Assembly (NCBI RefSeq): GCF_963675165.1
Contig: NC_087378.1
Span: forward strand, 5,203,205-5,267,204
DNA from: Halichondria panicea
Taxonomy: Eukaryota > Porifera > Demospongiae > Suberitida > Halichondriidae
Direction of reading: 5' to 3'
DNA length: 64,000 bases
In this document: positions 9,604-60,459 of the stretch, piece after piece
Numbering within the stretch: the first letter of the stretch is position 1
Layout: each line of letters starts with the position of its first letter
Program-made: the position numbers and the translations under genes
The notes under the pieces: generated by a model
Database searches by the model: none
What the model saw: only the letters and a program-made list of their open reading frames with translations
What the model was told of the DNA's origin: nothing

Positions 9604-10075
9604 ATCACAGATTTTACAGGGTAGAGTCTAGTAAAATACGATGACTGGGTGATTTTCTTTGAGGGACCACTCCACTATAGCTAGCACTGTAGAAGAATAC
9701 ATAGATATGGCGTGATATGGGCACACGAATTATGTACGCACATAAATGCAACAGTAGCACGTTGCATGGGATCGCCATTACTGTGGCTGTATAATCAAGG
9801 ATTCGAGGCTATCCATCCCACTAGCTAGTGCGGCCTGGTAATCGAGGTACTTAAGTAGCCTCGATTACTTAGAGTGTATGGAATCAAGGCTAAGACTTAG
9901 CCTAAATCCACGCATCAGAGTAGGTCCGACAGGCGACAGGCGCGGTGCAGCTCAAGTAATTAGCCCTTTGATTACTCTCAGCAAAAACATACGACGTGGA
10001 CGGATAATTATTCAAAGGCTAATTGCCTGAGCTGCACCGCGCCTCCTCTGTCCACGCATGATCACTTGCATTGCA
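9604..10075. repeat. Intergenic hairpins upstream of mtRF1
   Basis: Upstream of mtRF1. It contains a hairpin TAATCGAGG/CCTCGATTA at about 9838-9866 and a longer inverted repeat whose arms are about 9939-9970 and 10008-10043 (shared core GGCGCGGTGCAGCTCA). No coding sequence. The inverted repeat abuts the minisatellite. Confidence 0.5.
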
Positions 10076-11248: not shown

Positions 11249-12099
11249 GAAATCCAAGCAAATGTTTGCTCTGCTGTCATGAGGTTAAGTAGAGGGTTCA
11301 ATTCTCGAACCTTGGAAGGATGGTAAGTTGTCTGACAGTCTGTTCGTACATGATTTTTAATGTGCAATTAATTCATGGCAGTCATCATTATTATTATATA
11401 TATATATAGCCTCCTCTGAACTGAAACAAACTCCTGCATCCTCCTCTCAACAAATTCCTGCATCCTCCTCTCAACAAACTCCTGCACGTGAGGCTCACCA
11501 GAGCAGGAATGTGAGGCAAACAGGTGCAGTTACATTGAAGAAATAATTGTATTCTCCTGCCAAGTTGTGTAGGTCTCCCAAGAAGAAGCGATGCACGAGA
11601 CCACACCTCTCACTTTCTTTGAATGGATCACCTTCAAGTTCTGAGGCAGAATTACACACCTCTCAACAGATCACCTCTCAACAGATCACACCAATTACAT
11701 CGGACAATGATGAAGTTGAGTTTACTACACGGTCCGACGTTATTGAGCATTCCTCACTACTTAATCCTCAAAAGAAGAGAAAAGAGAGAGCTCTGCCGAC
11801 ACCAAGAGGAGTTTTTACTAGCACTCCAATTAACAAACATTCTGTGGCTGCTCTCAATCAATCAATTTCTCCAATCTGCCACAAGATTAAACCGAGAAAG
11901 CTACAAAAACATTTTGAGGGCAGTCGTCATGATGCAGATGAAAAGACCTCCATTTCATCCATTACTCAAAGGCCACATCAGGATCCCCCAATGCTTGAAT
12001 TGCAGCAAAAAGTCTCCCCTGGTAAGTGAGATAGGTCGGCCGGGACCAGCTATAATTATGCATGCATCTATATAAATTATAGGTTTTCACGATTGTGCA

Positions 12100-27300: not shown

Positions 27301-28687
27301 GTTCGTCACATATCTACTTTTTCTTAAGACTGCACGTCTGCAATATTCAGTTTACTTTTAGAATCGCATGCTGTTTTTATGTTGATTACAGTGTTTGCTT
27401 GGGACGCATTTGAACACGGGACTGACATCCACTCTTTGGCTGACCCTACTAAACTCGAAGTCATGCACAAGGAGTTTAAAGTCAATAAGGGGAGCTTCAA
27501 AGATGAGCAACAAAAGAGCATTCTAGAGCAGTATGGTGGCGAGGAACACCTTGATGCTCCCCCCAAAGAGCTGCTGCTTGCCCAGACAGAAGAGTATGTG
27601 GAGTACTCAAGACTTGGAAATGTGATTAAAGGGCAGGAGAAAGCTGTGACCAAGTCCAGATATGAGGAAGATGTATTCACTAACAACCACATTGTGAGCT
27701 TCTCCTCTCCATGTATTGATACACACGCCATGTTCAATCTTATATTATACTTAGGTGCCTTAAAGTATGTGCCAATCTGCAATATTTTTATCTAAATCTA
27801 ATGCCAAGAGCATCCATTACTTTGCACTTGTTGTATCATAGACCAAGTTTAGTGCCAATAATCACTCTTTTTACTGACGCGTTACTACTACTGTATACCA
27901 AGATACCGACAGCATAATTATGCAATAAAAGTACATGTACACTTTGTACAACTTGCTTCATGTTCTGTTTCAATACAGACCGTTTGGGGCTCATACTGGG
28001 AGGAAGGTAGATGGGGGTATGCGTGCTGCTACTCGCTTGTCAAAGGGTCTTACTGCACTGGAGAGTCAGGAAAGCTTGCCAGAAAGGTATCTACGATGTA
28101 ACAGAGATCCTATTACACACTATTGACATGCGATAGAAAACTTAAATTGAAGACTTGCTAGCCTTCCCAGTGCAATCTGACTGTGTTTTTTTTTTCTTCA
28201 CCTGTATGTAGGCCAGCCAACATGCAGTGTTTAGCACCACAAACGAGCAAGCATCTTCGGAAGAAGAAGACAAGCCTGTGACCCTACTGGAGCAGCACAA
28301 AACCAAGATGGATAAGAAGAAGAAAAAGAGTAAGGAAGACCAACTAAAAGAGGAACTAGAGGAAGAAGTGGCCAAGCAAGAAAGATTAAAAAAGGTACAT
28401 AGCTGAACTGTTTTGTACGCTTTGCACTGTCTATTTCAATACGCCGAAGATTCATGACCGTGCAACTTGCATATTTACAAAGGATTGATCATTTATTCTG
28501 CTTGTAGGCATTGAGAGTTGAAGAGGAAAGAGGTAAAGATATGACAAAAATCCTTGCGATGGATGAACGCAAGAGACCTTATAACTCAATGAAGGCTGAT
28601 GAGTCCAGAGAGCCTACTGAAGAAGAGATGGAAGCCTACCGCCTGAAAAGAAGAAGGCAAGAAGATCCAATGGCAGACTTTATGTAA
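24344..28687 (+). CDS. SLU7: Pre-mRNA splicing factor SLU7
   Basis: Second-step splicing factor that helps choose the 3' splice site in the spliceosome. Nine exons: 24344-24453, 24534-24596, 24855-25023, 26522-26761, 26958-27258, 27392-27693, 27979-28086, 28212-28394, 28508-28687. They give 551 residues (human 586). Seen: [29 protein letters not shown]; the CCHC zinc knuckle [18 protein letters not shown] (about residues 98-115); [65 protein letters not shown]; a Lys/Glu-rich segment; ERKRPYNSM and [19 protein letters not shown] at the end. Intron 3 (25024-26521) carries three palindromic elements, one holding a helicase fragment. For exon 5 an alternative acceptor at 26942 would break the frame. 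Confidence 0.95.
25178..25285. repeat. Hairpin element
   Basis: Inverted arms: GGAAACGCATGCACACTATC and CAATAGATACC face GGTATCTATTG and GATAGTGTGCATGCGC. Related sequence flanks the element at 26181-26380 (GCTCATGCACACTA on the left, GCAATAGGTACCAGGC on the right) and occurs near 55390-55460. In SLU7 intron 3. Confidence 0.6.
25615..26127. mobile_element. Foldback element (family D) with captured RecQ-like helicase sequence
   Basis: Long inverted arms of about 190 bp, each beginning TAGCCTCGTTCCCAGGCCGA and continuing through CTCCAATTGAACGCTA, GGAATTCGCTCAAAC and CACCTGTGACTCGAC-like sequence. The arms extend into coding-like sequence: the left arm reads ATGGAGACTTCAGTTCTGGA, the right arm reads ATGGATACTTCAGTTCTGGA on the other strand. 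No transposase. In SLU7 intron 3. Confidence 0.8.
25761..25925 (+). pseudogene. RecQ-like helicase 5' fragment inside the foldback element
   Basis: A 54-codon ORF starting ATG at 25761 and ending TAG at 25923-25925. It encodes [20 protein letters not shown] then [17 protein letters not shown], which is the Q-motif region and Walker A (motif Ia side) of a RecQ-type DEAH helicase. RecQ helicases unwind DNA 3'-5'; this piece has only the start of the first RecA-like lobe and no DExH box, so it cannot be an active helicase. The ATG region is duplicated in inverse orientation at about 25950-25970. Likely a captured gene fragment. Confidence 0.7.
26181..26380. mobile_element. MITE-like element, family A2
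   Basis: Ends ACCGTATAGCGAGTAATTTT and its inverse (AATTACCCACTATACGGT), with inner GTGGGGTAAAA arms. Centre TTCCGGTAAGCCACGCC resembles family A. A sister copy lies at 61848-62077. It interrupts a copy of the hairpin sequence seen at 25178-25285. Confidence 0.7.
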
Positions 28688-31230: not shown

Positions 31231-34200
31231 TTATTGTGCAATGTCTATTTTGAAGTCAGATGTAACCATTTCAATTTCGGAATCTTGTTCGTGTGAATTT
31301 AATCGATTGTGCAGTTCCATTTTGAAGCGATCGCCATACGCCCTACTTCTTCTCCTAGAAGGAGGTGTGGCCAAAACTGGTGGACTAGCTCCGTCTAGAA
31401 ATTCATCATCAGAGTCAGCTGAAACATAACCTATCCCGCTCACACTGTGAATGTGGTATGAAGATCTCGTTTCTGACTCTTCAATTGTAGTGATTGGTTC
31501 ACCAGGTAGCTTTTTTGGCGATCGGCTCAATTTCAATTGGTCGACTAAGATCCCAGAATCAGCAGTAGATTGGTCCTCTCGAGTGTTGATATCTGACATT
31601 GGTGCGTGCACAGTTGATAATGAACTTGCTGGTAAGTTATTACTGGCAGTCATGGGCATACAAGGATGCTGAAACTGATCTGAATTGAGGAAGATATCAA
31701 ATGTATTCTGCGGCATAATGTACATAACGTCCCATGAGTTCATATTGAGTCTAGCCTCCCTATCAAGAGCCTTCAATGCTTCAAGGTGATCAGCACCGTC
31801 AAAATCAAAGCTTTCATCACTATCAATCTCATCTCCTGTTTTCCGAAGCGAGGGGTTTCGTGAAACGCGTCGAGAAAGGTTTCCCATCTCGTATGTTCCA
31901 TCCTTTGATTTCCTCTTTTTACAACCACAAGTTACAAGCCATAGATTACGTGTTTCTTTCGCAAAGACAACGAAAATCAAGAAAATGAACAGCCCTTGAA
32001 GTGAATTAAAGATGACAAACAAATATTCAATGTAATTAGAAGTTCTCAGAACAGTAAAAGCACCGAATATCCACGTAAGACCGAATATAAGGATCACAGC
32101 AAGGATCGTAAAGATAGTTCGAACAGCAGCTCTCCTCTTCTTTACCTTGTTTCTATTTCGGAATTGCTTCGTGCTGTACCTCAAGATGATGATGAAAGCT
32201 ATAAAGAACATAATAAGGTTGAAGATTAGGATGCCAGCAATAGGCCCAAGGAATGACGCATAGAAGACAACACTATGGCTGATGAAGCAACTGTAATGTG
32301 AGAGAGAAAAATCAGTATTTCATTATCCAGTGACATTGATAGTCGATAAAGACTTACAATTGTTGATGAATGCTGAAGCTTCTGTCAATACCAATTGGCA
32401 CTACTACAGCTGGAATAGGCAACACTGCAAAAATAATAAATTTAATAACAGGAGTTTCTTACTAGTGAAAAAGCAGATCAACTAACTTACACCAACAGAT
32501 GAGTGAAGCGATGACAAAGTACGCAACAGAAGTCTTTGTAGCTGAAATGAGTTTCTGGAACATGAGCACTGCCTCCGCAGCCATCCACATCAAAGCTACT
32601 AGAGTGAAGTAGTGGATCAATGCAGAGATAGACACACACAGCTCGAATATCTCCACCCTTGCAATACCACATACAAATGCCACCAGCATCAGAGCAACAG
32701 ATAAACAGAACTGGATACGCAACACTGTAGAATCTCGTTTGCGAAGTTTACTGCAGAAACATTAAAGTTTGCTGACTTTAGCTATATTTATAGTAGCACA
32801 TACCTTTGCAATTCATACTAAAACATAATAATGGCACAAGAGTAGTCTACGTTACTAGTAGTATTTACCTGAATAGCAGTAATGTAATGACTGTCAGTGC
32901 TAGTCCCAGCAGTGATATACCAACTCCCACAACAACAATAGTGGAAAGGATGGGTCTTTGAAGCACTGGTGCTTCTGTAGGCTTAATACGAACATCCTAC
33001 AAAGCATGACAATTTAGAGTGATTAATAGTTCCACTAGGAAAGCTTCAAAACTCACCAGCAACACTGCAAAGTTAGTCAGGTGGCTACAGGAACAAGTAA
33101 CGACACCGTCCTTGTCTGATTCCAATTTGCATCCATTGGTGGTCCAGTTTCCTCTTCCACCTGTAATGAGATAATTATTATGTACCATTATCATTTTTCT
33201 GTGTTATAATTTTTAGTTTTCACTCACCAACAGCTGAGAAATCCCAAGACACACAAATTGGGTCAGAATAATTTCTATGGGTGACTGAAATAGTGTAGTT
33301 TATCGACTCCTTTAGATTCTTGATGGTTCTTTCTGATACAGTTGCCATTATAATGGGTGAAACTTCATGCGAAGCTGGACTCCTCAACACCTCAGTGCCA
33401 TTTGAAACAATGATGGGAAACAAGACACTCTTTTCATAGTAACCAAAGTAGAGTCCTATTGTATCGTCTGTTAGTTGTGAGGGGATCGAGTGAGGCAGAG
33501 AAATTGAGGACAAGAAAGTTCCTTCATCACCACTGCTTGAGGACAAAAGTCTCGCAATCACTTTTTGATCCGGGAGATGCACAAATGTAACAGTCTTTCT
33601 TTTCAGCTCATTCGGAGGAAAGATTTCATCAGACATGCCCTATGATGAAAACAATTTGTAATTAGAGTGTAACTATCAGTAAATTTCAGTAATACCTTTT
33701 CTACGGAGAATCCTAGGAAATTGTGGTTCTGATTCAAACTTTCAAATCCATCAACCTTGATGAGGCCCTCTGTGATTGCCTCCACAGCTCTGACAAGTCT
33801 ATTTCGAAATGAGAGACACAGTGTTAAATATTCTGAGCACACATACATGTACTATACTTACTTCACTGACTCTTCTTGTACTACATTAACTGGCCACTCC
33901 GGGAAGTGTAGTATGTCAACCACAGTCAATATCAACTCGTATGTCTGCAGAGCAAAACCTATTACTAAAATGTTTTCTAAGCATCAGCACGTCAATGCAT
34001 TATGACTTTAAGCATGCAATACTTGCGTAAAAAAACTTACCTCTGAATCGATAGTTGCAACTCCATTCGTCACATTCCTAGAATAGCCATAGAAAATCGT
34101 GTAGATTGGCCCAATAAATTCGCTCAATCCATCTGGGTTTTCTTTTCTGAGTCGATGAAGAGCTTTTATTAACTCCCGAAGATATTCTTTAGACAGACCA

Positions 34201-37200
34201 CCATCATCATCGGGCAGATTCTGTATTGAGAGGGTATATATCACATATAAAATTTGTAAGTCTTCATTGGCACTATACCTTGATAACATGTTTCAAAATA
34301 GCCTCAACACTGGCGTAACAACTCTCTACTTCAGGAGGACCCCAAACACCCTCAGGGCTACAACGTCTTGAAGCACTGCTATTGATGCATTCAAGAACTA
34401 CAACATCATTAGGGAATGCTTCTGGCCATTCAAAGTACCCTCGAGATGTGTCCGTATTTCCTCTCACGCACACAACTGTAAAATGTAAGCAGCAGATTGT
34501 TTGTGACTACTGATACAGACATTTTAATCAACCTGGCATTATAGGTATGATTAACCATCTCTTACCATCTTCATCATAGATCGCCACGGTTGCCCTCTGT
34601 GTACTCTCTGGAGTGTTGACTCCCACACTCAAGCTGGTAACAACAATGTCAAACCTCTCCACACTCTCCACAAGACGATCATCGAGCACTGACACCACAA
34701 CACATAGCGTTTTGTTCTCCTGACTAGGACTGAACTCAAGATTCCTCTCCAATGGGACATAATCGTGATCTACAGGTAACATGAGATCACCAGGTGTATT
34801 TAATTCTAGTACTCACAAATTCTCTAGAAAGGCTACAATTAGTAACTATAATTATTATACATAGTTGAACATGCATAGTTGATTTTAAAACTCACTGGCA
34901 GTTGCAATTGCCAGAGGACTGTTGGAAGATGCTGTAGCAACTGTGACGGTCACATTCCTCTCAATTTCCCCAGAGAGTTCCACGCACAAAGTGACACTTC
35001 TCTCAATTTCAATATCTTCACTAACATTAAGTAATAGCTCAACAAATCCCACAGTCACAATGTCGTTATCAATGATGTTGACAGTGCTGGTGTTGTCAAT
35101 GACAATGACACGAGGTGTGTAGCTGGTCGCTATGACTGTAAAGTATTCGGTAGTCTCAAGGATCGAATCGTTTACGATACTGATGAATGCACAACGTGTG
35201 CTGGTACCAGATGAAGGAGGAAATACAAGAGAGGCAGGGTCGCTGAAGGTGTAATCTGCCTGACCACCTGTGGGAAGGAAACCAATTAATGTATATCCGA
35301 TCTATCTATTGAGTAACACTAGCAATTATCTGCATGCACATCGAACATTCACGGTTTAATTACGCAAAAATAATCTATCTGCATGGTCACATTAGGCTGA
35401 CCTTGTTGGGCAGTAGCTGGCTGTGTTGAGATAAAGCATTCCACTTGAGTTTCGGTTCTCCCGGTCAACTCGATACACACCTGAGCTGGCCCCTCTCCTT
35501 CCTCCACTTCGTAAGAAGGCGCTCCAAATCTCAGAGTGGCCTCATCATCATCAATAATGGTCACAGTGGCACTTGGAATGTGGACACTGACTCCAGTGGT
35601 ACTTTCATCAATATATAAACTGACAGTGAAAGTCTCATTGGCTTCATATATGATGTCATCTATGACAGTGAAGTCTGCACACAGAGTTTGGTTGTCACTC
35701 TCAGATGCTTGAAACATGAGCGCAACTAATCTCACACTGGTGTAGTCAGCGCCACCTATATAGAACAAAAATGAGTGAAATAGAGCTAGATTCTAGTACA
35801 TTTTGTATTAAGTTTATCATTGAGACAAGGACATACCAGTTGCTGTGTTGGAACTGGTGGAGAGCATTACAGAGATACTCTTCTCAATGCGACCAAGCAG
35901 CTCCACGCATACTGGCTGGATTCTCTGGGCCTCCATGACTTCATACTTGCGTTCCTGAATCCCCATTCTCACTCCGTCATTGTCTAAGATGTATACATCA
36001 GCCACACTAGCAGCTGTAGTGTGAACCACACTGTCCTGAGAGGTCAAGAACACTTGGAACGACTCGGTGTTTTCCAAAACATTGTCATCGTTGAGGGCAA
36101 TAGACACACACTGCCTTCTAAGGCCCGTGTGGGAGATGCTCTCGTTGCGGAATAACGTGACATTGGATATTGCACGGTAATCATCATTCGGAGTAGCTGT
36201 AGTGAGGAAATAGGATATGTTAACGAATTTCACTTCTCAGATTGTATTACAGTAATAATATACGAAAGCAAAGCAACAGCATCTAGAATTTTTCACAGAT
36301 GATAGTTGTTAAACTCGACATAACTATGCGATGACAGAGGAGATTTTGCCCTACATAATAATTAGTGTATGGTTCAATTGATACAACTCCATGTGTACAC
36401 ATTTTCCCCAAATTTCTCTCTCTTACCCAGTGCCCCCTCTGCAGATGGTCTGGTAGAAACAAGAGCAGATACTTCTATCACAGCTATGCCCTTCATCAGA
36501 GCACAAACTTCAACGGCACTTCCCTCTTCATCAGAATATTCAGCTGCCTCAAATACCACTTCCACAACTGTGCACACACAAAATTAAGGATCAACAGGTA
36601 CATTGATTAGGTGGAGGTATACTATACATTAGTCAATAGTGCTTACTGTATCCACCACTTACAGTCATTGTCAGAGATGACAACAGTCAGCGTTCTGTTA
36701 ATCCCAACCGTGACTTGAGAAGATGAAATAACACGCAGCTCAATCGAAAACTCTTCCGGATTCTCAAGAATATCATCATCTATCACTGAAAAATCAGCAC
36801 ACTGAGCTTCTGTGATGTGGGCAGGGAATACAATGGGAACAGTCTTTGTGATGTAATCATCACCAGCCACAGCAGAAATGGGAAATGTTTGAAATAGAGC
36901 ATTAATGTCAAAGTCCGCCTCCCCGGAGAGTCGGGCACACACGTGTACTATCTCCTCGTCCTCAGACACAGATATTGTGCTCATTTCCAAGGTAATGGTG
37001 ACAACTGTTTGATACAACATTATCATGGGCATCAACATTAGTAATGTGCAACTTACAGTCATCGTCTTGGATAGCAACAGTGGCAGATGACTTTGTTTGA
37101 TCAATAACAATACGTGGGTCATTCGTTTGCAAGCTCAGATCCAGCTGCTTACTGCCACCCTCTTCTGTCACACTATCGTCAATGATTGTGATAGTTGCAC

Positions 37201-40200
37201 ACTGGGGACTGGATTCCGGCTTATCGGCACTGAGCCTATCAACAGGACTTAGCTGATACAAGGCAGAAAGCACATCTTCACTTGTTGGGGGGAGCTCAAT
37301 GGTTAATCCCTGAGTCTCAAAATCAACACCCTCTGTGAAATAAAGTATATTGAAAGTTACATGTAGCAGTTAACGTAGCAAAACCCCTTCACAAACAGCT
37401 ACTCTCCTACAAATATATGTAAGGTTCAGTGACGCCCCTAAGGACACATTCTAGTTGTTAGGTTGCAAACTTGTAGGTCTCACATATATTTGAGCTTGCA
37501 TGCATGTGTGTCTTTAAATTTACCTCTCATGAACTTTACTACGATTTACCTTTTGCAGTAACCTCCCTGGTAGATATGGTCACAGTAAATGGCTTGGTGG
37601 AATACCCTCGCAAGAAGAGACACACCTCAATATCCCCAACTCCCTCATTGACAACAAATGACTGCTCGGTAAAACCAATAGTTACCTCTGTGATGAGAAC
37701 AGATACCAAAAATAATTAAAAAGTTACACTCGAGGGCGACATTACATACCATCATTCTCCCTGATGATCACCGTAACAGTGCTGTGTTGAGTGACCTGTA
37801 CCCGTGGGTCATCTGGTATCAGTTGAAGCAGTAATTGCTCATCCCCCTCGACAACAGGGTCATCAAGCAGAGTCACACTGATGCTCGAACTTTGGATCTC
37901 CACTCTCTCTCCCACACTTTGGGTATTAAGAATATTGTTTGCGAAGTATATGGATTCCCCCCGAGCCTCATAATCTTCATGCTCTGTGATAGATGAATAG
38001 AAGGAGGAAGTATAATTATAATTATGTTATTTATGTACAGATAGTTTTGTATAACTGTTCATGAATTTAAATTCAATACTGGGATACTGTCACATGCAAG
38101 GGTGTGCCTGTGAACGGCATGCATTTGAGGGTGGGTACAAACGGCTCAACCCATGAATACCATTAACACATTCTATGCAGTGCTTCGGTTGATACAGAGA
38201 ATGACTACAACAACCATCATGGCATGCAGGTGCTTTTAAATATGTACACAGTTATGATAGCAGTCGAACATTTGCTTTGGAGCTCTAAACTCTGCTACAA
38301 TCAAGAGAAGTGAGTACCTGTAGCTGTTCCATTGACAGGGACCATTGATACTGAAACGGGAATGTCAACTTGACCTGATTGGCTTATGATCAGTTGGGTG
38401 CTCGCTGCGTTTCCTTCCTCTCTGACCTCAATTGTAGGGTCAGAAAAGAAAAATCCTATCCTCACAACTATAAAATAAGCAAGGCACTAATTATTATTCA
38501 CACGTACATAGCAATGACATGTATTTATACGTACACAGCGAATATTAAAGAATGTGTTCTCACCATCATTATCACGGATCAGGATGTCAGCAGTGTTCAT
38601 CGTGAAGGACACCAAACTATCGAAATAATCCACCGTCACACTGAATGTTTCTATTTCTGTTTCAAAGTAAGGGTCATTTTTGATGTCGATCAGAGTGCAT
38701 GCAGTGGTGGCATCAGGCAAGAAGATAATATTTTCAACTTCACGTGTAAAATCACCACGATCTCCATCAAAGACTGCAGGGAAAGTGAGTAAAACGGATA
38801 CATAAAGTATTTCTGGCAAAACCACACTTAAGCGGACAATGGTCCAGCACTTACAATTAGCAGTTCCCTCGAATAGAGTAGTCTCTACTACGATTGTCCA
38901 CTCCATTTCTCCAGTCCTATTGACACAGATGCTGATTTCATCTTTTGCTTGCCCTTCATTGAATTCGTATTGACTTTGTAGCAGGCTGAGTTGAATGTCT
39001 GCATGCATGCACCAGAAAATTTAAATCAGCACGAGAATATCTCAAGAGAAAAATTATTAAGAGTTAAGTTACTGAGTCAGCGACACATAGCAACTACATG
39101 AATGTTTACGCAGGCTTCAGAGAACTGCCAGGATTCGAGAATACATGTAACCTAATACCAGTGCGAATATGAATGCAGTCTAGACAAAAGATAAACAACA
39201 ATTATACCATTACCATCCAGATTATTACCAGTTTGTGATAATTACCTGCATGTAACTACAAGTATGACCTTCACTAGAAACACTTTGCGCCAAAACATTC
39301 ACTCCTACTCATATCTGACAACCACCCTTAGTGTCTTCAAATGACTAGCGCAAATCTATAAGGCTTGGGCCACACATGTATGTATGCTAGGCCAGACAAA
39401 ACAGTAGCACCATACGAATTAATAAACATACCATCATTGTCCGTGATGCGAACAACAACACGAGGTTTGGGAACAGAAACTTCCAGAGCCTCATCTTTGT
39501 AGATTTCGAAACCAAATATCTCTTCTCCCTCGTAGACTGTGTCCTCGATTATCGGTATCGTGAGACAATGTTGCTGTCCTGCATTGCTGGGAGTGAACTC
39601 CAAGACAATACTGTTGCCGGCAAAATCATCGCCATTAGTAGCCGGTCGGACTATATCTGTGGAAAGAGAAATAGTAATGTGCAGTACACCAGCTACAAAG
39701 TTTGGCTGATGCAAGCAAGAATTAAGTACCTCATGTGATCCATACAAAACGACAAAATTGGTTTTCTTGTATTATCTATCTCTGACTAACAGCATTATAG
39801 CGCAATTACTTTGAATGAGCTCAACAGGTTTCCTGGTCCTCAATGTAACGCTGAAGTTGCCACCCAACTGTTCCGGCGTCATGAGCAAACAAGTTGTGAC
39901 TGAGCCACCCTCCATCACAGTGTACCCATTCTGGTCGAAGGACAACACTACTCTCCGAGCTGTAAACATAGATTTATAGCATAATTGTTAAGCAGCAATT
40001 AACTAATCTGGTGCCAAACAACTAAAAGCAATTAAACACATGGCGCACAAATATGTAATAAATTAACAAGCAGCATGCATACCATCGTCATCTTGTATCG
40101 TCACTGATACCCGAGAAGTATCCACAGAAATTCTCTCTTGGGAAAAGGCATTGCTGAAAGCAAAGTAGAACGCCTCCTCATTCTCAAAAATCTCATCATT

Positions 40201-43200
40201 TTGAACTGAAATTGTTGAACACACAGTTGATGTTTGCACAAATACCAACTCTCTATTGATTGCAGGTGAGAAGTCTTCATTTTCTGTAAGAAAAAATTCG
40301 GTCCATAAGTACGTACAGCACATGCATGTACATTGTAGGTGCAGCTAGTTAGACGTACCGCCTAGCAAAAAACCTCAAGAGACATATTCGCGTATGCATT
40401 TGACCACAATATGCCATGTATAAGCATAGACAGAATACAACAGCACTATATAATACCTATAGATCTATCTAATGCTTGGTGTTACCTAGAGCAGTTCCTG
40501 GACTGGTGTTGTACGCAACAGTGACAGTCTTTTGTGATGTGACAATGTTCCCATTGCTGTCAGTGATCTTTCCACAGACTTGCACAAGACGTTCCTCCTC
40601 AGACACCACCAATGTAGAGGTGAGGGGAGCCATGATACCAACTGTAGAGAGGCACATTATCTTTATGACAGTGAATACAACAAAAATGGTGTTTGTTTTA
40701 TGGCACGATGGCAAAGTCGGTTTTATAGTAACAACGTGAACAAGCGTTCTCATACCATCATCATCCTGAATTCTTATGACAGTCTGTCGTGGCAGTACAG
40801 CGATAAATTGGTTGGTATTGCCTGTAGGTTGCAGTAATAGAGTAGCATATTCCTCATCTTCAAGTACTGCATCATTTTCGAGTGTAACTGTAATGCACTC
40901 AGTGTACTGTGCAAAGAATGACAGTTGTCTATTGTTCACGTTGTAATCGTCATCATCTGTGAAAATGTATCCATGTGCAAGCAATGCAAACACTCATTCC
41001 ATAGCATTAGCACTTGATGTTTACCTAATGGCATCTAAGATAGACAACATCTCAACACATTCCAGCTGGCTATTCAGTTACCTGCAGTCTGTAGTCCGGT
41101 TACTATTGACGCAGTGATGGTACTTGAGAGCATTCCACTGAGCACGGAGGCACACACCTGAAGGCTGCCACTGACCTCAGATACAGTATGAGCAGTTTGA
41201 TCCCAACCAAGAATCACACCTACATGTACATAATTATTATGACCATAATTATTTTATAGCATGCTGAGCACATAAATTTCAAACACATAAAACTAGAGTG
41301 ATGGGCATGATGTAATACTGGCAATAATACTCAGCTGTCACATAATAGTTTTGCATGTGTGTCATGCAGTTGTCTCTCACAGGAAGAGTATATTATAGAC
41401 TCCATGGCACCATTCAGAAATTGTAATCATTACACACACCGCCAGATAAACTGATTCACACGCACCAGATTAAGCATAGCAACAATGGTTTAATTTATGC
41501 TACAGATTAAGTTGAAGGACATGCACAGGAATGCAATCTAGGTCATATTTTCATTGCTTAATGACTTACCAAACTATGAATACAATGAACTTGGCCACTT
41601 AGCATTTTTATTGTGTATCTAATTCAACATTGATTAGCTATCATCCTTTCTCTTCATGATCGATTCAACAGCTTGTCTTCTAAAACAGTGGCTACACTAT
41701 AATAATAGAATCATGGTACATACTGCATCCCTCGCTCATAACTCTTAAACATACTGTATAGCTACAAGTATCCCATAAAATGTAGGCTATAGCTATAATT
41801 TATAACACATGTTGTTTTAGCCACACCAGTTCTTGGAAAATGATTTCGCCAATTAATTAAATTGTGAGGCATTCCTAGTAATGATAAACTGGCCCTAAAC
41901 TGCAGTGAACATTGCACCCAATACTAAAGTCTATCTAATAGGGATTACTAGTGCATGTATGTACCTGGCAGTGTTGGTATGGTGTCCACTCTCCACACCC
42001 ACAGTCCCTCCTCCCCAGAGTTCCCAGTGTCAGTGATGTCCAGTACATCCTTAGTGCCTGACGAGGGAAGGGTGGTGTTTTGGTCACCCCAGCTGAGGCC
42101 CACTTGAGCAAACGGGGAGCCAGAAAGTTGCATTCCTCCAGTTAAGTAGTACACGATGATGTAGGACTGCGAGCCACTCGTAGCCAGAATACATTGAAAT
42201 GTGTTTGTCTATGATAGTGGGACACAATATAAACAAAGCATTCAAACACTGACATACCAATCAAGCCAAGACTATAGAGTGCATGCGGAATGGCCATCCA
42301 TGAAAGTTAGAACAGTGTAGGTACCACAGGAATTTCAGGAATATCAATTTTAGCTATAGGTCAGTTGAAAGGTTGAAACTCTACGCTGATATAAGAGCTT
42401 CCCCACACACAAGCTCTACATGCCTCATTGGGTGATGTCAGAAGCTGAGCAATGCTAACACATTGTCAACACACGTTCCAATCCTCTGACATACACAGTT
42501 CTCAGTAAAACATTAAAGTTAAATCAACATAGGGTACTTACTTCCATAGCACTGCCGATTCCTTGCATGTTTTCCCATGTCACGACAACAACTGATGAAA
42601 CTGCAGACAATGTACTTGGCAAAGCAGTTCTGACAACCGAGGTGGCCTTAGTGAGATCAGCAACATCCACAGATTCTTTAAAGTACACCTGGCCACTCTC
42701 TGAGTAGTTGTAACTGGTCCAAAATGGTGCTATCAGGGAGGGATCAGAGCGGAATGTCCCAGGGAGAAAGTCGAAGTCTGCTCCAAGAGATATCAATCCA
42801 TTAGAATTCACCTGAAGTCAATAAGACATATGACACAATCCTGCATAAAAACCTACATAGCAAACTTCTCGTGTGAGTAATTAATGTGTACCGCTCACTG
42901 CATAATGGTCACATCACAAGCATATATAGTTATAAAATTATGTACATGCATGTAAAAAGGGATTGACTGTGTACCTGTAAAGAACTCCTTTAATACTACC
43001 TGCAGCAAACTACTACTGTAGGGAATGATGAATAATGTTGGACAACAGGCATGATAGGCTAAAATTCCAGATTAGTAACTTAGTCTACAATAATTTTGCA
43101 CAATGTACGGCGCTCGACTCTTCTACGTGTGTTACGTAGGTACATCCTCAGAGTGCAAAAAAGAGAAGACACTGGCTGGTGATAATTATGATACAAAGAA

Positions 43201-43815
43201 AGGTTTGGCATACATATAATGTATTTGCACTCTAGTTCTATAGATGCACAATAAATAAATTATTATACATGTAACGTATTCGCATCAATTTTGCTTCCCT
43301 GCCACAAGTACAGGTCAAATATAGCAGTAGCACATTGATTCAGCTGTTGCTTGAGCTTCCAATACAAATAATGTAGGTGATCAAAAATAATGTATAGGTG
43401 ATTGATCCATAAAAGTGGACATTAGTGGCCGGTACAATACCATCCGAACCAGTATAGAAAACATGCATACCAAACACACAAACAGTCGCTCGCAGTAACC
43501 TCTATGGTTTTAATTGTTGTCTGCATAACATGCAGCCCATGCACAAAGGGTATAGACTGTATACACATGCAGGCCGGAGCAAGACAGCTATATAGATTTT
43601 GCATGTTATAATTATAATTATGATACACTCACATAGATTGAGTTGAACTCAAGACCATTGTATCTAAATGAGTTGCTGAGCTGGAGAAGAGAGCTAGCAG
43701 TCTGTCCTCGAGGAACCACTCTCTCCCCATAACTGAAAAAACTTGAGACTGAAACAGCTTCAGCTTGAAGTGCAAGCAGGGTCAACACAAGAGCATATAG
43801 ACCTAGTCTTTGCAT
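31231..43815 (-). CDS. Adhesion GPCR with NIDO and eleven calx-beta domains
   Basis: Giant surface receptor: 31 exons, about 2,428 residues. Order: signal peptide (1-20, MQRLGLYALVLTLLALQAEA); NIDO (about 25-232; NSNGLISLG, LIAPFWTSY, WENMQG); eleven calx-beta domains (233-1565), most ending in an xxDND/xDDDG turn such as VTIQDDDG or VRITDNDG; hormone-receptor-like domain (1566-1631; FEWPEAFP, RRCSPEGVWGPP); GAIN (1632-1925) with GPS CVSWDF, TTNGC, CSCSHLTNFAVLL, keeping cleavage triad HLT; 7TM (about 1937-2180) with FTLVALMWMAAEA in TM3, FGLTWIFGAF in TM6 and FNSLQGLFIFLIF in TM7; Ser/Arg-rich tail of about 245 residues. Exon 1 is 43815-43633, the last 32290-31231; the 30 introns keep frame. 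Calx-beta domains suggest calcium-dependent adhesion and the GPS a tethered agonist (both inferred). ADGRV1 is the nearest concept, but it lacks NIDO and has far more calx-beta repeats. Confidence 0.93.
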
Positions 43816-44382: not shown

Positions 44383-47300
44383 TCATGAGGGTGGCTGCTT
44401 TAATGACAGATAAAGCTTCCCTTTAATCGTCTGTTTCTCGACATTCTTAAGGTTCTGTATTATCTGGTGCAACTGATCCACAATTTTCTTCTTGTCCATA
44501 TCAGATTTCTTGCTAGTGAACTTTCTCACAAGATCCTTAGATGTGATTGGCCTTCGAGACAGATAATGCTTTACTTCTTCGTCGGTTATAGTACTTAGGG
44601 AGAATTCCTTCTTGGGTTTTTTTGGAGGTGGCTGAGGGGAAGCGGAGGGGGCATTGGACGAAGTGTCTGATTGTCTCTCTCTCTCCCGTTTTACTCCTTT
44701 GAGACTGCTATCTTCACGGGATGTCTTAGGAGACACAATGACTGGGTCTGGGAATAATCAGTCATGATTATAATTATTTATAAAAATGATTACTGTGGAA
44801 CACACTAATGGGAAGGGCATCATACAAAATACCGTGTGACATGGATTAGTGACCAATTACATTCATAACGGATAACTAAATTATCAGTGCATGGAATGTG
44901 TAACCTGAGCCACTGATAATATTCACTAACGTATATGTAGTTCCACCATTCAACTGTTCCGGATAGCCACCAACAGCAACAACATTGACCTTAATGGGAA
45001 AGCATCCCAGGAATGAATGAACATGGGTTCTAGGAGCCAAATACAAAGTAATCTACAGATGTGCACACTTGAGAGGGTGCTAATGTGGGAAAACAGCAGG
45101 AGTAATTAAGTTATTGTCCAGAAGCAAGGCCGATAGATAGCAAAACCACAATTTGGTTGTCAGCTGAATATCATTATGCTTCTACCTAGGAGGAGACTGT
45201 AATCATTCATACAACCTGTACAGCCAGCCAGAACAACAAGGACTATAGCAAAGACAATAATTATAACCCAAGTATGAAGATTTTCCGCTGGTGGAGCATA
45301 GCAGCATAATGATATTCATAGATGCCAGCCTACTGTGGTCTTGTGGCTCTGGAGAACTGTTGTGCAAGCCAGGTAGAGGCAACAGCAGGCGCACATTCAT
45401 TAACACCTTAACATTTCTCAGAGGAGTATTAAACCACCTGGTGGTGTGGCAAGTAAAAGGAGTGCATCACATAATACTAACTATAATGCATCAATAGGTA
45501 AGCACATTGCCAAAAGCTAATCCAAAATCTGTCTAGGTATGAATGTTTCTACAGCTTATCTATACCTTTGATCGTGTGCATGCCTTATCTAACGGCAGAG
45601 AAGGTTGGACATGCGTCATAAGTCATGTGTGATTTTCTTCACAACACTCCCAACGTTACAATAGATACCGCATGTGGAGGAGGTCCGACATGCTTGCACG
45701 AATCACTACAAGTTCAGGTAATTGTGGCCAATTATAACGATTTTGAAAGCTTTGCACTCAGAGATTCTGTTCTTAGTCTCTATAAAGCCTTCTATAAGTT
45801 TGCATTGACAACAAAAATGCCAGTTCATTAAACAATCTGATGCACGTGATGCAGTGGCGGACACAGGAATATTGAATATTGAAAGAGGGGGGGCTATCAC
45901 CAGAAAATTTGCAAAAAAAAGGTCAACTGTTTTTCGAGTGTAGCAATTTTACTAAAAAAAAAGGTCAACAACCTTTTGGTTGGGTACTGTATGTTCAGCA
46001 GGATAGACTAGCTAGCAGCACATTAGGACACCAGACTAGCTAGATTCAACAGCCTACAACTAAATGGTCTGCTGAAGCATAGCACGTGACATGATTGCTG
46101 TTCTAAGCTCTAAGCAATACCCACTTCGGTAAAATCCAGGGAACGAGCCAGAGCTGCAGTCTGTCTAGATGGAGGGGGGGGGGGCTACTTGTATCCGCCT
46201 CTGTGATGGTGGTCCAACCTCCTCTGATCTAACTAAAAGTTACTAGGAAAGGTCAGAAGTAAAGTAGCAGACCAATTAACAACGGTCTGTTGGCCAATAT
46301 CTTGTCATTGGTCATTGGCTGTTAGCACTTAATACAGAATGGTTTTTGTGTGCACACATCCCAGCAGCAGTTTCCTTTGAAGAATTAACACTTCTAAAAC
46401 AGCTGTTTAAGTCAGAGGGTGTGACAGACAACCCAAAACACGGTCTAGTACAAACATCACCAATTAGTAAACTGAAAACATTTAGCAAATACAATACAGA
46501 ATCTTCAAAATGAAGCCACAGAACGCAATGATGTATTTACGTACTCAACCTGCACCACTAACAGAATGTTTATTACATCAAAAGACAGTCATAATGGGGA
46601 ATAACAAAGGGAACTAGGATGCACTCAACAAATAACTCAGTCCCCATTGTGAGCATAAAGTGCCTACAGTGTCATAGCAAAACCTACGTACAAGTACATG
46701 TGCACCAATGCTCACCTTTGTCAAATGGTTTCTCAATGTCAATCTCATCATCTTCCTTCTCAGACTCAGTCTGTCCGGATTGCTTCTTTATTAAAGCATT
46801 GAGCTCCTTGCCTACATGTAAGTCACAATAAGCTAAATGCACGTTTCTTAACGGTACAGGTATGCACTTCTAAGTGATAATTATGGTGAATGCTATCACA
46901 AACAGGTTTTTAGTACAAGTACTGTAGTGCTAGAAATGTATGCGTGATACGCTATTTATGTGAGCGGCTATCATATCGCATACTTTTGTATAGCACAATA
47001 AATGATTGAGAAACTAAGTTAATTGCGAATATCGCAATTTTATGCTCATACACAATTTCTAGCACTACGGTACGGTGCATGTAAATCCACTACAGCGAAA
47101 ACATTCCATTGTTACTTCTTTGTGTCCAAGGACAATCTCGTCTGAGAACTACATGTATTAGTGTAGTACCTCCATGAAATACTCACTACTCGATTTTGAT
47201 TTGCCTACAGGGACTCTACATACCACGCTATTAACGATTACCTGTATCTTATGGTGACCCATCTCAATTCTACAGCCCCTTTGGTCTACAACAGTGCCCA

Positions 47301-56256: not shown

Positions 56257-59200
56257 ATGGCTGCAGGCTCAAGGAGCCATTTATACAACCAGAAGACACA
56301 GACGTTGTACGTTTGCAAGCATGGCGTTTGGCTGCTAGCTCTCCTATCTCTGTTCCAGTGCTGTGGTGCTAGTTCTGTTGTATCAACTCGTCTGACTGGC
56401 TACAGACCTGTAGAAAAGTACAGAGGCATTGACGATGATGGCGTGTTCAATATTTTAGGTGAGTTTACTTTTAAACTGTTGCATATTGAAGTACTAAAAT
56501 TTGTGGATTTGTGTTGTATACAGGTCAGCAGAATTTATTTGCTATAGACATCTTTATAATTAGTGCACGTGCAAGCTATAAGCTAACCCTTAATAAGTAC
56601 ACGCAGGTAAAATCTTTCCAATTTTGTCACGTCACGTCACGCCTTTCCATGCCTATTCATGCTTTTTTCACTCTCCAGCTGGCAGCAATGTCACCTTTCT
56701 TTTGTTTGGAGAAGGTATCAACAACAACACTTACATCAAGTTCACTGAGAGCCCAAGCTCCTGTAATGATCGTGAAGTAGACAGAGTGGGCGGCAACCGT
56801 GTTCTACCGTATCCCCCGAATGATAATCGAACTGATTCTCCCAACACTCAATATAGCTTGTTCTTCAACTTGTTTTCATCAGAACAAAGAACATACTACT
56901 TTTGTTTAGACTTCGATGGTAATAACAACTATAAGCATCAAGGCTCCGATACATGGCTTACAGTAGTTGTTCAGATTGACGCCTTGCCTCTCTGGGCCAA
57001 AATTGTCTTCATTATTACTCTGATGATTCTCTCTGGCCTTTTCTCTGGTCTTAACCTTGGACTTATGGCTTTAGACCCAACCACACTTAAGATTATCAAA
57101 CAGAGTGGCACTAAACGACAACGAGTGTATGCCAACATCATTTTTCGTGTTCGAAGGCATGGAAACTACCTACTGTGTACTCTGTTGCTTGGAAATGTTG
57201 TAGTGAATAGCTCACTTACAATTTTGCTAGATGAAGTACTCCCAGGTGGCATATACGCTGTGCTTGCTTCTTCACTTGCTATTGTTGTTTTCGGTGAAAT
57301 AATTCCTCAGGCAATTTGTTCTCGGCACGGACTTGTGATAGGAGCCTGGACTATCCCACTCACCCTGATATTCATGGTCCTAACTCTTCCTTTATCTCTT
57401 CCTTTTAGTTTTGTCCTGAACTTAATTCTGGGAAAGGAGGTAGGGGCAGTGTACAATCGGGATCAACTGTTGAAACTGCTGGATGTTACTCAAGAACATC
57501 ATGATATGGTGGAGGACGAGGTCAAAATTATCACTGGTGTGTTGGCTTATAAGGGGAAGGTGGCTGAGAAGGTCATGACCAAGTTTGAGGATGTGTACTT
57601 TGTCAGTGTGGATAGTATGCTTGACTTTAAGCTGATGCGAGAGATTTACGATTCTGGCTTTAGCCGAATTCCCATTTATGAAGGAGATAAAAACAATATT
57701 GTTGGACTATTATACGTTCGTGATTTGGCGTTTGTTGATCCTGATGATCAAACTGCAGTCCAAGCCCACATGGAGTTCTACAAACATGAGCTCCAGTTTG
57801 TTTGGCATGACACTAAGCTGGGAGAGCTATTAAAAGTTTTTGTGTCTGGCAAGTGCCATATGGCCGTCGTGCAGAAGGTCAACAATGAGACTGAAGGAGA
57901 CCCTTTCTATGAGAATGTTGGTGAGTTTCGTATTATAGGCATCGAACGACATTCGTAATTAGTGTATGTGTTGTGTACATGCCAATTAACGATTGTTCTC
58001 ATCAAATCTGCAAGCCATGTTGTTGTCTTGTGCCATCTGATTGTGATTTAATTCCGTAGTGTTGTGTGTGTAAGTGTAAGATGCAAAATAGACTGGTTTT
58101 GAAATGTATGTACACTACCGTATGGTCTAATTGCTCATGCCGTTTTCAATCAGGAGTGGTGACTCTGGAGGATATACTAGAGGAAATACTTCAGCTGGAG
58201 ATTGTGGATGAGACAGACAGATTCAGTGAGCTTGTACTATGCGCGCATGCACACACACACACCACACACATGGTGTGGGCATGCAACGCATACCATAAAA
58301 ATGGAATATTTTCGTATCATCTAAGTTTTCCGTTTTTTACGTATCAGAGCATTAATCCAAAAATTAAATTGTTAATGCATGATAGGTTCTTCGTCAACCA
58401 TTCTGAGCTGTTGTACGAATATTTAGAATAGGAAATAATTGGTGGTTCATACGAAATTTGCACCAACAAAAATTACCTCCTATACGTTCCTAGGTAGCTG
58501 CGTATAATTGACATTATTCTATACGTTGCTGATTTTGTACGTAGCTGTGTATAACTATTGCTTCTGTCCTTATACTACATAGTACGTACGCAGCACCCAC
58601 TAATAAACATTGTGCCCTCTTTTACTCAGCTGATAATCAGAACAAGAAACTTAATTCAAGGAAGAACTTCAATGTGGCTGAGTTTGACAATCCCTCGGGA
58701 GAAGACACCCTCTCTTCGCAACAGAGACTGGCAGTCTTCCAGTTCCTTTCCACAGGTACATGTATAGCATTCTGCATAGTCACATATAGGTATACGTAGT
58801 TGGTGTTTTCCTGCAAATTTGAAATTGTTAAGACCATGTGCATGAAAATGTCATCGGTTTCTGTACTTTTGCATGAGAGCCCTACATAATTTTGTTTGAC
58901 GATCCTTATTATGCCTCGGTTGCGCATGCGCAGCGAGGTATGCAGTAGTGTGTGTGTGGATAGTGTTACAGCTACTCAATGATAAATAAAGGGAAAGCTT
59001 CCAGTCACGTTTTCTTGGATTGCACAATTTGTGGAATTGTAAAATTAATAATGCTTCGTTCTCGAGTTATGGCTAGTTTTGCTCACTTTGAAGGCTGTTG
59101 GAGACTTTTCAGACTCTTGCATAACAAATGGCTATACTACCTGGTAGGTAGCTCTGCACTAGCTATTGGTAGCTGCAAGAGTGAGAAAAGAACTGCAAAA

Positions 59201-60459
59201 CCACACTGTTTCTCATTTGGTTTGCAGCACCATTAATAATTATGGACTTTGAACTTTTGGTTTCCTTTTTAGCAATAATCATAGTCGATCATTTCTCACT
59301 CTTTTTCAACCAACATTCCCTGCTCTGATTCCCTACATGTACTGTAATGAACTGTACATGTGTGTGTATTTAATAATAGTCTGTAGCACTGTAGCTTCGT
59401 TGCTTATAAAGTTTTGGCGCCTCCACTGAGGGAGGCATCAGCACCCACGGTGCTTTCATTATTAAATATAATTATGAGCATTGGCCCTATTTAGCCATAA
59501 TGTCCCTCAATGCAACCCCTTAAATGTGAGACCAAATCCTTTGAGAGGAGAAGCTATCATTTTTCACACCCTAATCCTGTATTATTGTTTTTTCAGTTGT
59601 TGAACCTTTCCAGAAGAAGTACATTTCACACAATGTTCTGAAGCGTCTTCTTATGAAGAGTGTGGTTCGAAAAATATCACTAGAGGAGTCAAACAGAACT
59701 AACCTGCAGCTTTACACCACCGGAAATGAAGCTAGCTTTTTCACCTTGGTTCTTGAAGGGTGTATGGAAGTACATATTGGCAAAGATGAGCTCACATTTG
59801 ATAGCAAGTCCTTCACATACTTTGGAGCACAAGCTCTTCTTAACTCTACACTGGACACACCCACTGAGTACATTCCAGACTACACTGTGCGTCCAAGTGT
59901 CGACAGTATCGTGATCATCATTACTAAGCGACAATACCTTGCTGCTGTAGAAGCATCCCGATTCGTAGAGGAGAAAACTGGCATCTCCATTGAGGCGAAT
60001 GGGGGAGCCATTGAGAATCCGAAACGAGATGTATTTGCTAAAGAGTGGGAGCTAGCTGAGGACCAAGATCTGGGAGATTCACAATTATCGACCGGGCTTA
60101 GCTCTATAACTAAGTTCCTAAAAAAAAAGCATAAGCACTCCCAGCAACCCTCTGATAAGCGGCATTTACTGACTCAATCAAGCGAAGATAGTTCTGAATC
60201 CCAGCATTCACAATCTTTGCACAAAGCTGTTACTGTAAAGCGTTCAGTAGATGTTTTGGAAGACAGATATAAATGGTTGTCCCCACCTGAACAAAATGGA
60301 GAGAGCTTGCTGGAAACGCGGAGTGATGGCGATGTGTCAACTGAATTAAGTGTGCTGCCAACTGAAGTGCAGGACTATGAGAGTGAACCCAATGCAAGTT
60401 ACTTCAGAACTAGTGTGGGCAGAGAGGAATGGGCTCACAACACCTCCACGGAGGTTTGA
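56257..60459 (+). CDS. CNNM-family metal (magnesium) transport mediator
   Basis: Plasma-membrane CNNM protein, a family linked to Mg2+ efflux. Five exons: 56257-56458, 56679-57920, 58154-58225, 58630-58755, 59597-60459; 834 residues (human CNNM2: 875). Seen: N-terminal hydrophobic signal (VWLLALLSLFQCCGASS) and extracellular domain; DUF21 transmembrane domain (about 172-350) with FSGLNLGLMALDPTTL, LLGNVVVNSSLTILLD and VVFGEIIPQAICSRHG; CBS pair (MTKFEDVYFV; FSRIPIYEGDKNNIVGLLYV; GVVTLEDILEEILQLEIVDE); cyclic-nucleotide-binding-like domain (FFTLVLEGCMEVHIGKDELT, SFTYFGAQALLN); hydrophilic tail. The ATG at 56257 is chosen over an upstream in-frame TTG. Paralogue number within CNNM1-4 is not assignable. 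The intron before the last exon contains a 550-bp repeat. Confidence 0.94.
58371..58475. repeat. Dispersed repeat, copy 2
   Basis: TTAATGCATGATAGGTTCTT, CGAATATTTAGAATA and GGTTCATACGAAATTT parallel 52850-52940. In a CNNM intron. Confidence 0.55.
58911..59460. mobile_element. Probable non-autonomous repeat element bounded by hairpins
   Basis: Begins with a strong palindrome GCCTCGGTTGCGCATGCGCA then GCGAGGT, followed by a TG run, and ends with two small hairpins (GCCTCCACTGAGGGAGGC; AGCACCCACGGTGCT) and TTTCATT. No ORF is supported. Its nature as a dispersed element is inferred from this structure; no second copy is in the window. In the last CNNM intron. Confidence 0.4.

What the first reader, a model, noticed from the sequence alone, without database searches (positions are those of the whole stretch)
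31231..43815. Adhesion GPCR with a NIDO domain, eleven calx-beta domains, a hormone-receptor-like domain and GAIN/GPS
The 31-exon reconstruction gives an unusual order: signal, NIDO, 11 calx-beta, HormR, GAIN-GPS, 7TM, long tail. Established: ADGRV1 combines many calx-beta domains with a GPS and 7TM, and NIDO is found in nidogen, tectorin and mucin-like extracellular proteins. I know of no described receptor with NIDO plus calx-beta plus 7TM. This could be a lineage-specific matrix or calcium-sensing receptor.
Basis: partly seen in the sequence, partly recalled or inferred. Interest (0 to 1): 0.75.

Follow-up and report, generated by a model that had tools for sequence, protein, structure and literature searches.

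The report
Adhesion receptor with unusual domain mix
The region holds one intact animal gene for a cell-surface adhesion receptor whose outer part joins a nidogen-like head to a calcium-binding rod of eleven repeats, a combination not found described in the papers seen; it looks like a new mix of known parts rather than a new kind of receptor.

Summary
A 31-exon minus-strand gene (43815-31231) joins through 30 of 30 GT..AG introns into 2428 residues without internal stop. NIDO, Calx-beta, GPS and 7tm_2 pass Pfam cut-offs; 11 of 11 Calx-beta segments pass singly. HRM stays below cut-off (15-18.4 of 26.2 bits). The cleavage triad HL/T is present. Of nine side-chain Ca2+-ligand positions of NCX1 CBD1, seven are acidic in at least 10 of 11 repeats. 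NIDO fits the gene by phase, codon usage and start; no transcript was available, and a NIDO-only isoform is not excluded. By 7TM score it is not an ADGRV1: ADGRG2 93.5, ADGRV1 46.6 bits. The same genome has Calx-beta receptors without NIDO hit, a NIDO-Calx-beta gene without 7TM match, and a NIDO-EGF-SRCR receptor, which suggests domain shuffling. I rate it a new variant of a known kind. No other animal genome was searchable. A 2021 Halichondria figure legend lists NIDO, Calx-beta and 7TM among domains of its receptor families, so precedent is not excluded.

The parts
43633..43815 (-). exon 1: ATG, signal-peptide-like start MQRLGLYALVLTLLALQAEA (by eye and hydropathy; no predictor run), start of the NIDO region
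   Evidence: hydrophobic windows at residues 5-27; codon score
42542..42811 (-). exon 2: NIDO first half
41965..42208 (-). exon 3: NIDO second half, ends in phase 1
41082..41219 (-). exon 4: Calx-beta 1, first part
40756..40956 (-). exon 5: Calx-beta 1, second part
40486..40641 (-). exon 6: Calx-beta 2, first part
40083..40283 (-). exon 7: Calx-beta 2, second part
39810..39959 (-). exon 8: Calx-beta 3, first part
39432..39656 (-). exon 9: Calx-beta 3, second part
38855..38998 (-). exon 10: Calx-beta 4, first part
38564..38773 (-). exon 11: Calx-beta 4, second part
38318..38467 (-). exon 12: Calx-beta 5, first part
37750..37983 (-). exon 13: Calx-beta 5, second part
37550..37687 (-). exon 14: Calx-beta 6, first part
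37057..37332 (-). exon 15: Calx-beta 6, second part
36663..37004 (-). exon 16: Calx-beta 7, whole domain in one exon
36427..36567 (-). exon 17: Calx-beta 8, first part
35837..36196 (-). exon 18: Calx-beta 8 second part and Calx-beta 9 first part
35402..35755 (-). exon 19: Calx-beta 9 second part and Calx-beta 10 first part
34896..35267 (-). exon 20: Calx-beta 10 second part and Calx-beta 11 first part
34566..34769 (-). exon 21: Calx-beta 11, second part
34279..34475 (-). exon 22: hormone-receptor-like (HRM-like) domain, below Pfam cut-off; then start of GAIN by position
34041..34220 (-). exon 23: GAIN, by position only
33862..33944 (-). exon 24: GAIN, by position only
33696..33798 (-). exon 25: GAIN, by position only
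33228..33639 (-). exon 26: GAIN, later part aligns with ADGRG2; start of GPS
33057..33160 (-). exon 27: GPS core with C-S-H-L/T-N-F-A-V-L-L (expected cleavage between L1917 and T1918)
32869..32996 (-). exon 28: linker and TM1
32491..32750 (-). exon 29: TM2, TM3 and start of TM4
32358..32424 (-). exon 30: end of TM4, extracellular loop 2
31231..32290 (-). exon 31: TM5 to TM7, intracellular tail of 238 aa, stop
41220..41964 (-). intron 3 (745 b) between NIDO and Calx-beta 1: read-through of exon 3 meets a stop after five codons and the intron holds two AATAAA/ATTAAA hexamers, so a short NIDO-only isoform cannot be excluded

Best explanation
One intact gene encodes a self-cleaving adhesion GPCR. 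Shown by sequence: a signal-peptide-like start, NIDO head, a rod of eleven Calx-beta domains with Ca2+ ligand positions kept, a weak HRM-like domain, a GPS with the cleavage triad, 7TM and a 238-aa tail. Inferred: the rod is stiffened by the Ca2+ outside the cell and holds the NIDO head away from the membrane, where it binds matrix or a neighbouring cell; GAIN cuts itself at HL/T; pulling on the held N-terminal fragment, or its release, exposes the tethered agonist TNFAVLL, which turns on the 7TM and a G protein. Ca2+ is a structural cofactor rather than the signal. The gene arose by shuffling of phase-1 modules in a genome that has other NIDO, Calx-beta and SRCR adhesion receptors.
For: Gene model with 30 of 30 GT..AG introns and 19 consecutive phase-1 introns over the Calx-beta rod and both its borders. 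Pfam hits. With codon usage trained on exons 4-31, exons 1-3 together score 0.24 bits per codon in the proposed frame against -0.20 and -0.34 in the other two, and intron 3 scores -0.51 to -0.57; between the nearest in-frame stop and exon 4 there is no ATG, and no minus-strand frame of 60 aa or more lies inside intron 3. The upstream neighbour on the same strand is the end of a TFIIF-alpha gene at 44383 (52.6 bits), so NIDO begins its own gene. Ca2+ ligand positions of NCX1 CBD1 (PMC3386913, passages), placed by eye through the profile alignments: E385, D421, D447, E451, D498 and D500 are acidic in 11 of 11 repeats, E454 in 10 (Lys in one), D446 in 7 and D499 in 5 (Asn in the rest). GPS and the stretch after it align with ADGRG2 and ADGRG6. 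The HRM-like domain ends 324 aa before the 7TM match, within the 280-330 reported for HRM-GAIN-7TM (PMC12716839, passages). Related architectures in the same genome.
Against: No transcript or protein data. HRM below cut-off in both scans. The first part of GAIN has no Pfam hit. NIDO finds no solved relative by sequence up to E 0.1. The acceptors of exons 2, 3 and 4 score low (3.1, 3.9, 1.7; median of 30 is 8.7), though exons 16, 17 and 25 score as low; one antisense frame of exon 2 is also slightly positive in the codon test (0.049). Ligand, G protein and Ca2+ affinity are unknown; no structure was predicted and no signal-peptide predictor was run.
Confidence: 0.65

Rival explanations
1. Two genes, or mainly two transcripts: NIDO exons 1-3 make a small secreted protein, and the Calx-beta receptor starts elsewhere.
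For: Intron 3 is 745 b, read-through of exon 3 meets a stop after five codons, and intron 3 holds AATAAA/ATTAAA hexamers at offsets 352 and 470; the acceptor of exon 4 is the weakest of 30 (1.7).
Against: No ATG lies in frame between the nearest upstream stop and exon 4; exon 3 and 4 phases fit; codon usage is shared. Of 68 GPS hits in the genome this is the only one with a NIDO hit within 20 kb upstream on the same strand, at 8.9 kb, which is as expected for one gene but does not prove it.
Confidence: 0.07
2. A true ADGRV1 (VLGR1) orthologue that gained a NIDO and lost EPTP.
For: Calx-beta rod plus GPS plus 7TM; ADGRV is described as the adhesion subfamily shared by animals, choanoflagellates and filastereans (PMC12716839, passages), so a sponge copy could be expected.
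Against: 7TM alone: ADGRG2 93.5, ADGRL2 87.8, ADGRE1 85.5, ADGRV1 46.6 bits. No EPTP in the protein nor a hit in the genome (where nothing rang in the controls either, so absence is not shown). That ADGRV1 has EPTP and no HRM is recalled.
Confidence: 0.08
3. A self-recognition receptor: its NIDO-Calx-beta ectodomain is a membrane-bound relative of secreted NIDO-Calx-beta or aggregation-factor-like proteins, binds them or itself with Ca2+, and reports contact.
For: The same genome has a gene at C2:281-268 kb with a signal-peptide-like start, a NIDO hit, EGF-like and somatomedin-B-like stretches (by eye) and 28 ORFs matching my Calx-beta profile, and no GAIN or 7TM match in the 10 kb beyond. Demosponge aggregation factors with a Calx-beta domain are tied to adhesion and allorecognition (PMC10815962, one passage).
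Against: Membership of that C2 gene in the aggregation factors was not tested; no polymorphism, binding or expression data; the host was not identified by any tool.
Confidence: 0.12
4. A peptide-hormone receptor working through the HRM domain.
For: HRM-like match just before GAIN.
Against: Score below the family cut-off; more than 1500 residues of NIDO and Calx-beta lie outside it.
Confidence: 0.04

Closest known systems
ADGRV1 / VLGR1
   Same: Array of Calx-beta domains joined to GPS and 7TM.
   Different: 7TM scores much nearer ADGRG2/L2/E1 than ADGRV1; NIDO at the head, HRM-like domain, 11 repeats, no EPTP hit. The detailed layout of ADGRV1 is recalled.
ADGRG family (ADGRG2, ADGRG6)
   Same: Best solved-structure matches over the later GAIN part, GPS and 7TM (162.2 and 156.7 bits).
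   Different: No match outside that part; identity of the two 7TM pieces used is 28.6 and 26.6%.
Calx-beta adhesion GPCR cluster of the same genome (C1:16.39-16.47 Mb)
   Same: 7TM pieces 39.9-42.8% identical; Calx-beta matches upstream in four of five loci.
   Different: No NIDO hit in the cluster; the tree puts the window gene outside the clade that holds the cluster, with weak support (SH-aLRT/UFBoot 73.4/56 and 58.5/69).
NIDO-EGF-SRCR receptor of the same genome (C2:6.94-6.97 Mb)
   Same: NIDO hit at the head, GPS, 7TM pieces 37.5% identical.
   Different: EGF-like and SRCR stretches in place of Calx-beta, two GPS hits and two HRM matches below cut-off.
NIDO-Calx-beta gene of the same genome (C2:281-268 kb)
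   Same: NIDO hit followed by many Calx-beta matches.
   Different: EGF-like and somatomedin-B-like stretches between (by eye); no GAIN or 7TM match.
NCX / CALX regulatory domains CBD1 and CBD2
   Same: Calx-beta domain and Ca2+ ligand positions (profile E 4.9e-24).
   Different: Cytoplasmic regulators of an exchanger; here extracellular repeats.

Membership tests
Adhesion GPCR (class B2) | 7tm_2 domain with seven hydrophobic helices | tested here: met
   7tm_2 107.8 bits, cut-off 20.6; hydropathy peaks over residues 1935-2184
Adhesion GPCR (class B2) | GPS with H-L/T or H-L/S cleavage triad | tested here: met
   GPS 56.5 bits, cut-off 22.5; CSHL/TNF
Adhesion GPCR (class B2) | Full GAIN domain | tested here: inconclusive
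   later part aligns with ADGRG2; earlier part has no family hit
Adhesion GPCR (class B2) | Self-cleavage and tethered-agonist signalling | not testable with these tools
   needs expression
ADGRV (VLGR1) | 7TM nearest to ADGRV1 | tested here: not met
   ADGRV1 46.6 bits against 93.5 for ADGRG2; by score, not by a tree
ADGRV (VLGR1) | Calx-beta array | tested here: met
   11 of 11 over cut-off
ADGRV (VLGR1) | EPTP/EAR repeats (recalled) | tested here: not met
   no EPTP in the protein; the genome search found none but does not show absence
HRM-GAIN-7TM module | HRM domain before GAIN | tested here: inconclusive
   18.4 bits, cut-off 26.2; spacing 324 aa fits 280-330
Calx-beta domain | family score and Ca2+ ligand residues | tested here: met
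NIDO domain | family score over cut-off | tested here: met
   113.5 bits, cut-off 25
Sponge aggregation factor | Calx-beta plus the factor-specific domains | not tested
   no model for those domains was run

The most novel reading that the evidence does not exclude
A contact receptor for self or matrix: its NIDO-Calx-beta ectodomain derives from secreted NIDO-Calx-beta adhesion proteins of the same animal, binds them in a Ca2+-dependent way, and turns the pull of cell-cell aggregation into a G-protein signal, which would be a receptor for sponge-type aggregation.
Probability: 0.12. Interest if true: 0.75.

Novelty: new variant of a known kind. Interest (0 to 1): 0.37.

Why it matters
It suggests that a Calx-beta rod occurs on an adhesion GPCR whose 7TM is not of the ADGRV1 kind, so Calx-beta receptors may have arisen more than once, and that NIDO is used as a head domain by more than one adhesion GPCR of this animal. 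If its ligand were the animal's own Calx-beta adhesion proteins, it would give a testable link between cell aggregation and G-protein signalling in an early-branching animal. If not, it remains a well-formed example of phase-1 module shuffling.

Tried and rejected
Counting twelve Calx-beta domains was rejected: the sixth is matched in two stretches. An ADGRV1 identity was rejected on 7TM scores; the tree could not test it because I had no ADGRV1 sequence, and it left the window gene on a weakly supported deep branch. A solved relative of the NIDO head was sought by sequence and not found. A search for EPTP gave nothing, and nothing rang in the controls either, so it is no proof. Structure prediction was not used: the tool takes proteins that the DNA gives letter for letter, and this protein is spliced from 31 exons.

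Paper searches that bear on the architecture: 442 papers with two or more of four terms, 20 listed; 2 papers; 'NIDO domain' with 'Calx-beta': 0 papers; 2 papers, both off the subject by title; 38 papers, 15 listed; 119 papers, 12 listed. Nothing that I saw in these listings or in the passages read describes NIDO with Calx-beta on a 7TM receptor; unlisted papers were not seen. [quoted passage not shown] the figure itself is not held. Searches on aggregation factors: 2 papers; 40 papers, 12 listed.
Full report
The finding is real. I read the minus strand, set the exon borders by eye and joined them in a script: 31 exons from 43815 to 31231 give 2428 residues and one stop at the end; 30 of 30 introns are GT..AG and all phases fit. 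Introns 3 to 21, which cut the Calx-beta array and both its borders, are phase 1. Pfam gives NIDO 113.5, Calx-beta 394 in 12 stretches, GPS 56.5 and 7tm_2 107.8 bits, all over cut-off, and HRM 15 bits, below its cut-off of 26.2. Cut into 11 segments, 11 of 11 match Calx-beta over cut-off, from 35.0 to 73.6 bits; segment six is hit in two stretches, which explains the twelve.

Does NIDO belong to this gene? There is no transcript. The case from sequence: the upstream neighbour on the same strand is the end of a TFIIF-alpha gene at 44383, so the NIDO exons begin a new gene; exon 1 has a signal-peptide-like start (by eye and by hydropathy; no predictor was run); between the nearest in-frame stop and exon 4 there is no ATG; with codon usage learned from exons 4-31, exons 1-3 score 0.24 bits per codon in the proposed frame against -0.20 and -0.34, and intron 3 scores -0.51 to -0.57. 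Against it: intron 3 is 745 b and holds poly(A)-like hexamers, a read-through of exon 3 stops after five codons, the acceptors of exons 2, 3 and 4 score low (3.1, 3.9, 1.7; median of 30 is 8.7), and one antisense frame of exon 2 is slightly positive in the codon test (0.049). A NIDO-only isoform remains possible.

What the parts say about function. The GPS carries CSHL/TNFAVLL, the cleavage triad and a tethered-agonist-like stretch, and phmmer aligns this and the 7TM with ADGRG2 (162.2 bits), ADGRG6 (156.7) and ADGRL3 (140.8). A Calx-beta profile made from the 11 repeats finds NCX and CALX regulatory domains best (E 4.9e-24, 17 sequences matched). The side-chain Ca2+ ligands of NCX1 CBD1 as given in PMC3386913 (passages; I449 left out; E454 by implication, as its change to Lys replaces Ca1) were placed by eye on the alignment: six positions (E385, D421, D447, E451, D498, D500) are acidic in 11 of 11 repeats, E454 in 10 with Lys in one, D446 in 7 and D499 in 5 with Asn in the rest. 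D498-D500 were placed through the CALX alignment, since the NCX1 alignment ends earlier. So the rod very probably binds Ca2+. That Ca2+ is a signal is not shown. The HRM-like domain ends 324 residues before the 7TM match, within the 280-330 reported for the HRM-GAIN-7TM module (PMC12716839, passages).

Kinship. By 7TM alone the best solved matches are ADGRG2 93.5, ADGRG4 90.5, ADGRL2 87.8 and ADGRE1 85.5 bits; ADGRV1 has 46.6 (28 sequences). A 7TM exon of a receptor in the C1:16.4 Mb cluster also prefers ADGRG2, and ADGRV1 is not among its 18 matches. The receptor is therefore not filed under ADGRV, though its rod may work like that of ADGRV1. A tree of two 7TM pieces from 15 loci, the window gene and two human sequences puts the window gene on a deep branch with weak support (SH-aLRT/UFBoot 58.5/69 and 73.4/56 at the nearest nodes), so it does not say whether the Calx-beta rod was gained once or twice within this genome.

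The genome. The window lies in a 131 Mb genome. Hit tables give 110 NIDO, 68 GPS, 164 7tm_2 from 150 scored of 227 candidates and 151 Calx-beta matches from 150 scored of 645 candidates; the last two are lower bounds. Of 68 GPS hits, only the window's has a NIDO hit within 20 kb upstream on the same strand (8.9 kb); seven more, at four loci, have one 23 to 77 kb away. One of these, C2:6.94-6.97 Mb, reads as NIDO, EGF, SRCR and EGF stretches, two GPS hits and a 7TM; one SRCR was confirmed (55.9 bits) and two HRM matches are below cut-off (16.6 and 19.9 bits). Two others, C2:6.97-7.02 and C11:2.00-2.08 Mb, look alike from hit positions and close 7TM pieces only. A cluster at C1:16.39-16.47 Mb has five 7TM loci, four with Calx-beta matches upstream and none with a NIDO hit. 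A gene at C2:281-268 kb has a signal-peptide-like start, a NIDO hit, an EGF-like and a somatomedin-B-like stretch (by eye) and 28 ORFs matching my Calx-beta profile, with no GAIN or 7TM match in the next 10 kb. So NIDO, Calx-beta and 7TM occur in several combinations in this genome, and the window gene is most simply one result of shuffling.

Novelty. The Amphimedon survey (PMC4302439, passages) reports 40 adhesion receptors, 28 with GPS and at least 8 with HRM; its domain figure legend names neither NIDO nor Calx-beta, and one search counts 0 of both words in it. The 2026 review (PMC13197933, first 300,000 of 412,533 characters held) has no NIDO. The survey of choanoflagellates and kin (PMC12716839, passages) has no NIDO and names ADGRV as the adhesion subfamily shared with animals. 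The Halichondria panicea survey (PMC8242945, section 13 read) found 57 GPS receptors, and its legend to a figure of five receptor families lists NIDO and Calx-beta among other domains; which receptors carry them cannot be read. Searches gave no description of the combination in what was listed. I rate it a new variant of a known kind.

Noticed in passing
G000:C2:6940745-6969897 (-), L018-L020: Adhesion GPCR with a NIDO hit, EGF and SRCR stretches and two GPS hits before one 7TM; two look-alikes by hit position at C2:6.974-7.022 Mb and C11:2.000-2.079 Mb. Pairs of GPS hits 3-4 kb apart also at C3:3.98 and C15:3.87 Mb.
   Followed up: partly
G000:C1:16390000-16467000, L009-L017: Cluster of five adhesion GPCR loci with very similar 7TM pieces, four with Calx-beta matches upstream.
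   Followed up: partly
G000:C2:268128-281948 (-), L022-L023: NIDO gene with EGF-like and somatomedin-B-like stretches and 28 ORFs matching Calx-beta, many in a tandem array of about 406 bases per unit; possibly aggregation-factor-like. Its upstream neighbour reads like SMC3 (by eye).
   Followed up: partly
window 9964-11367: Short tandem repeat open in several frames on both strands (ORFs of 342-442 aa made of CNRCNGATDATV- or LLHRCICC-like units).
   Followed up: no
window 56597-60459 (+), 27328-27795 (+), 2097-3002 (-), 44383-44757 (-): Neighbour genes by Pfam: CNNM metal transporter, SLU7 splicing factor, FAD-dependent oxidoreductase, TFIIF-alpha.
   Followed up: partly
G000:C6:2382998-2383231 (-): A weak Calx-beta match (32.1 bits) inside an open frame reported as 10065 aa long, odd for an intron-rich genome.
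   Followed up: no
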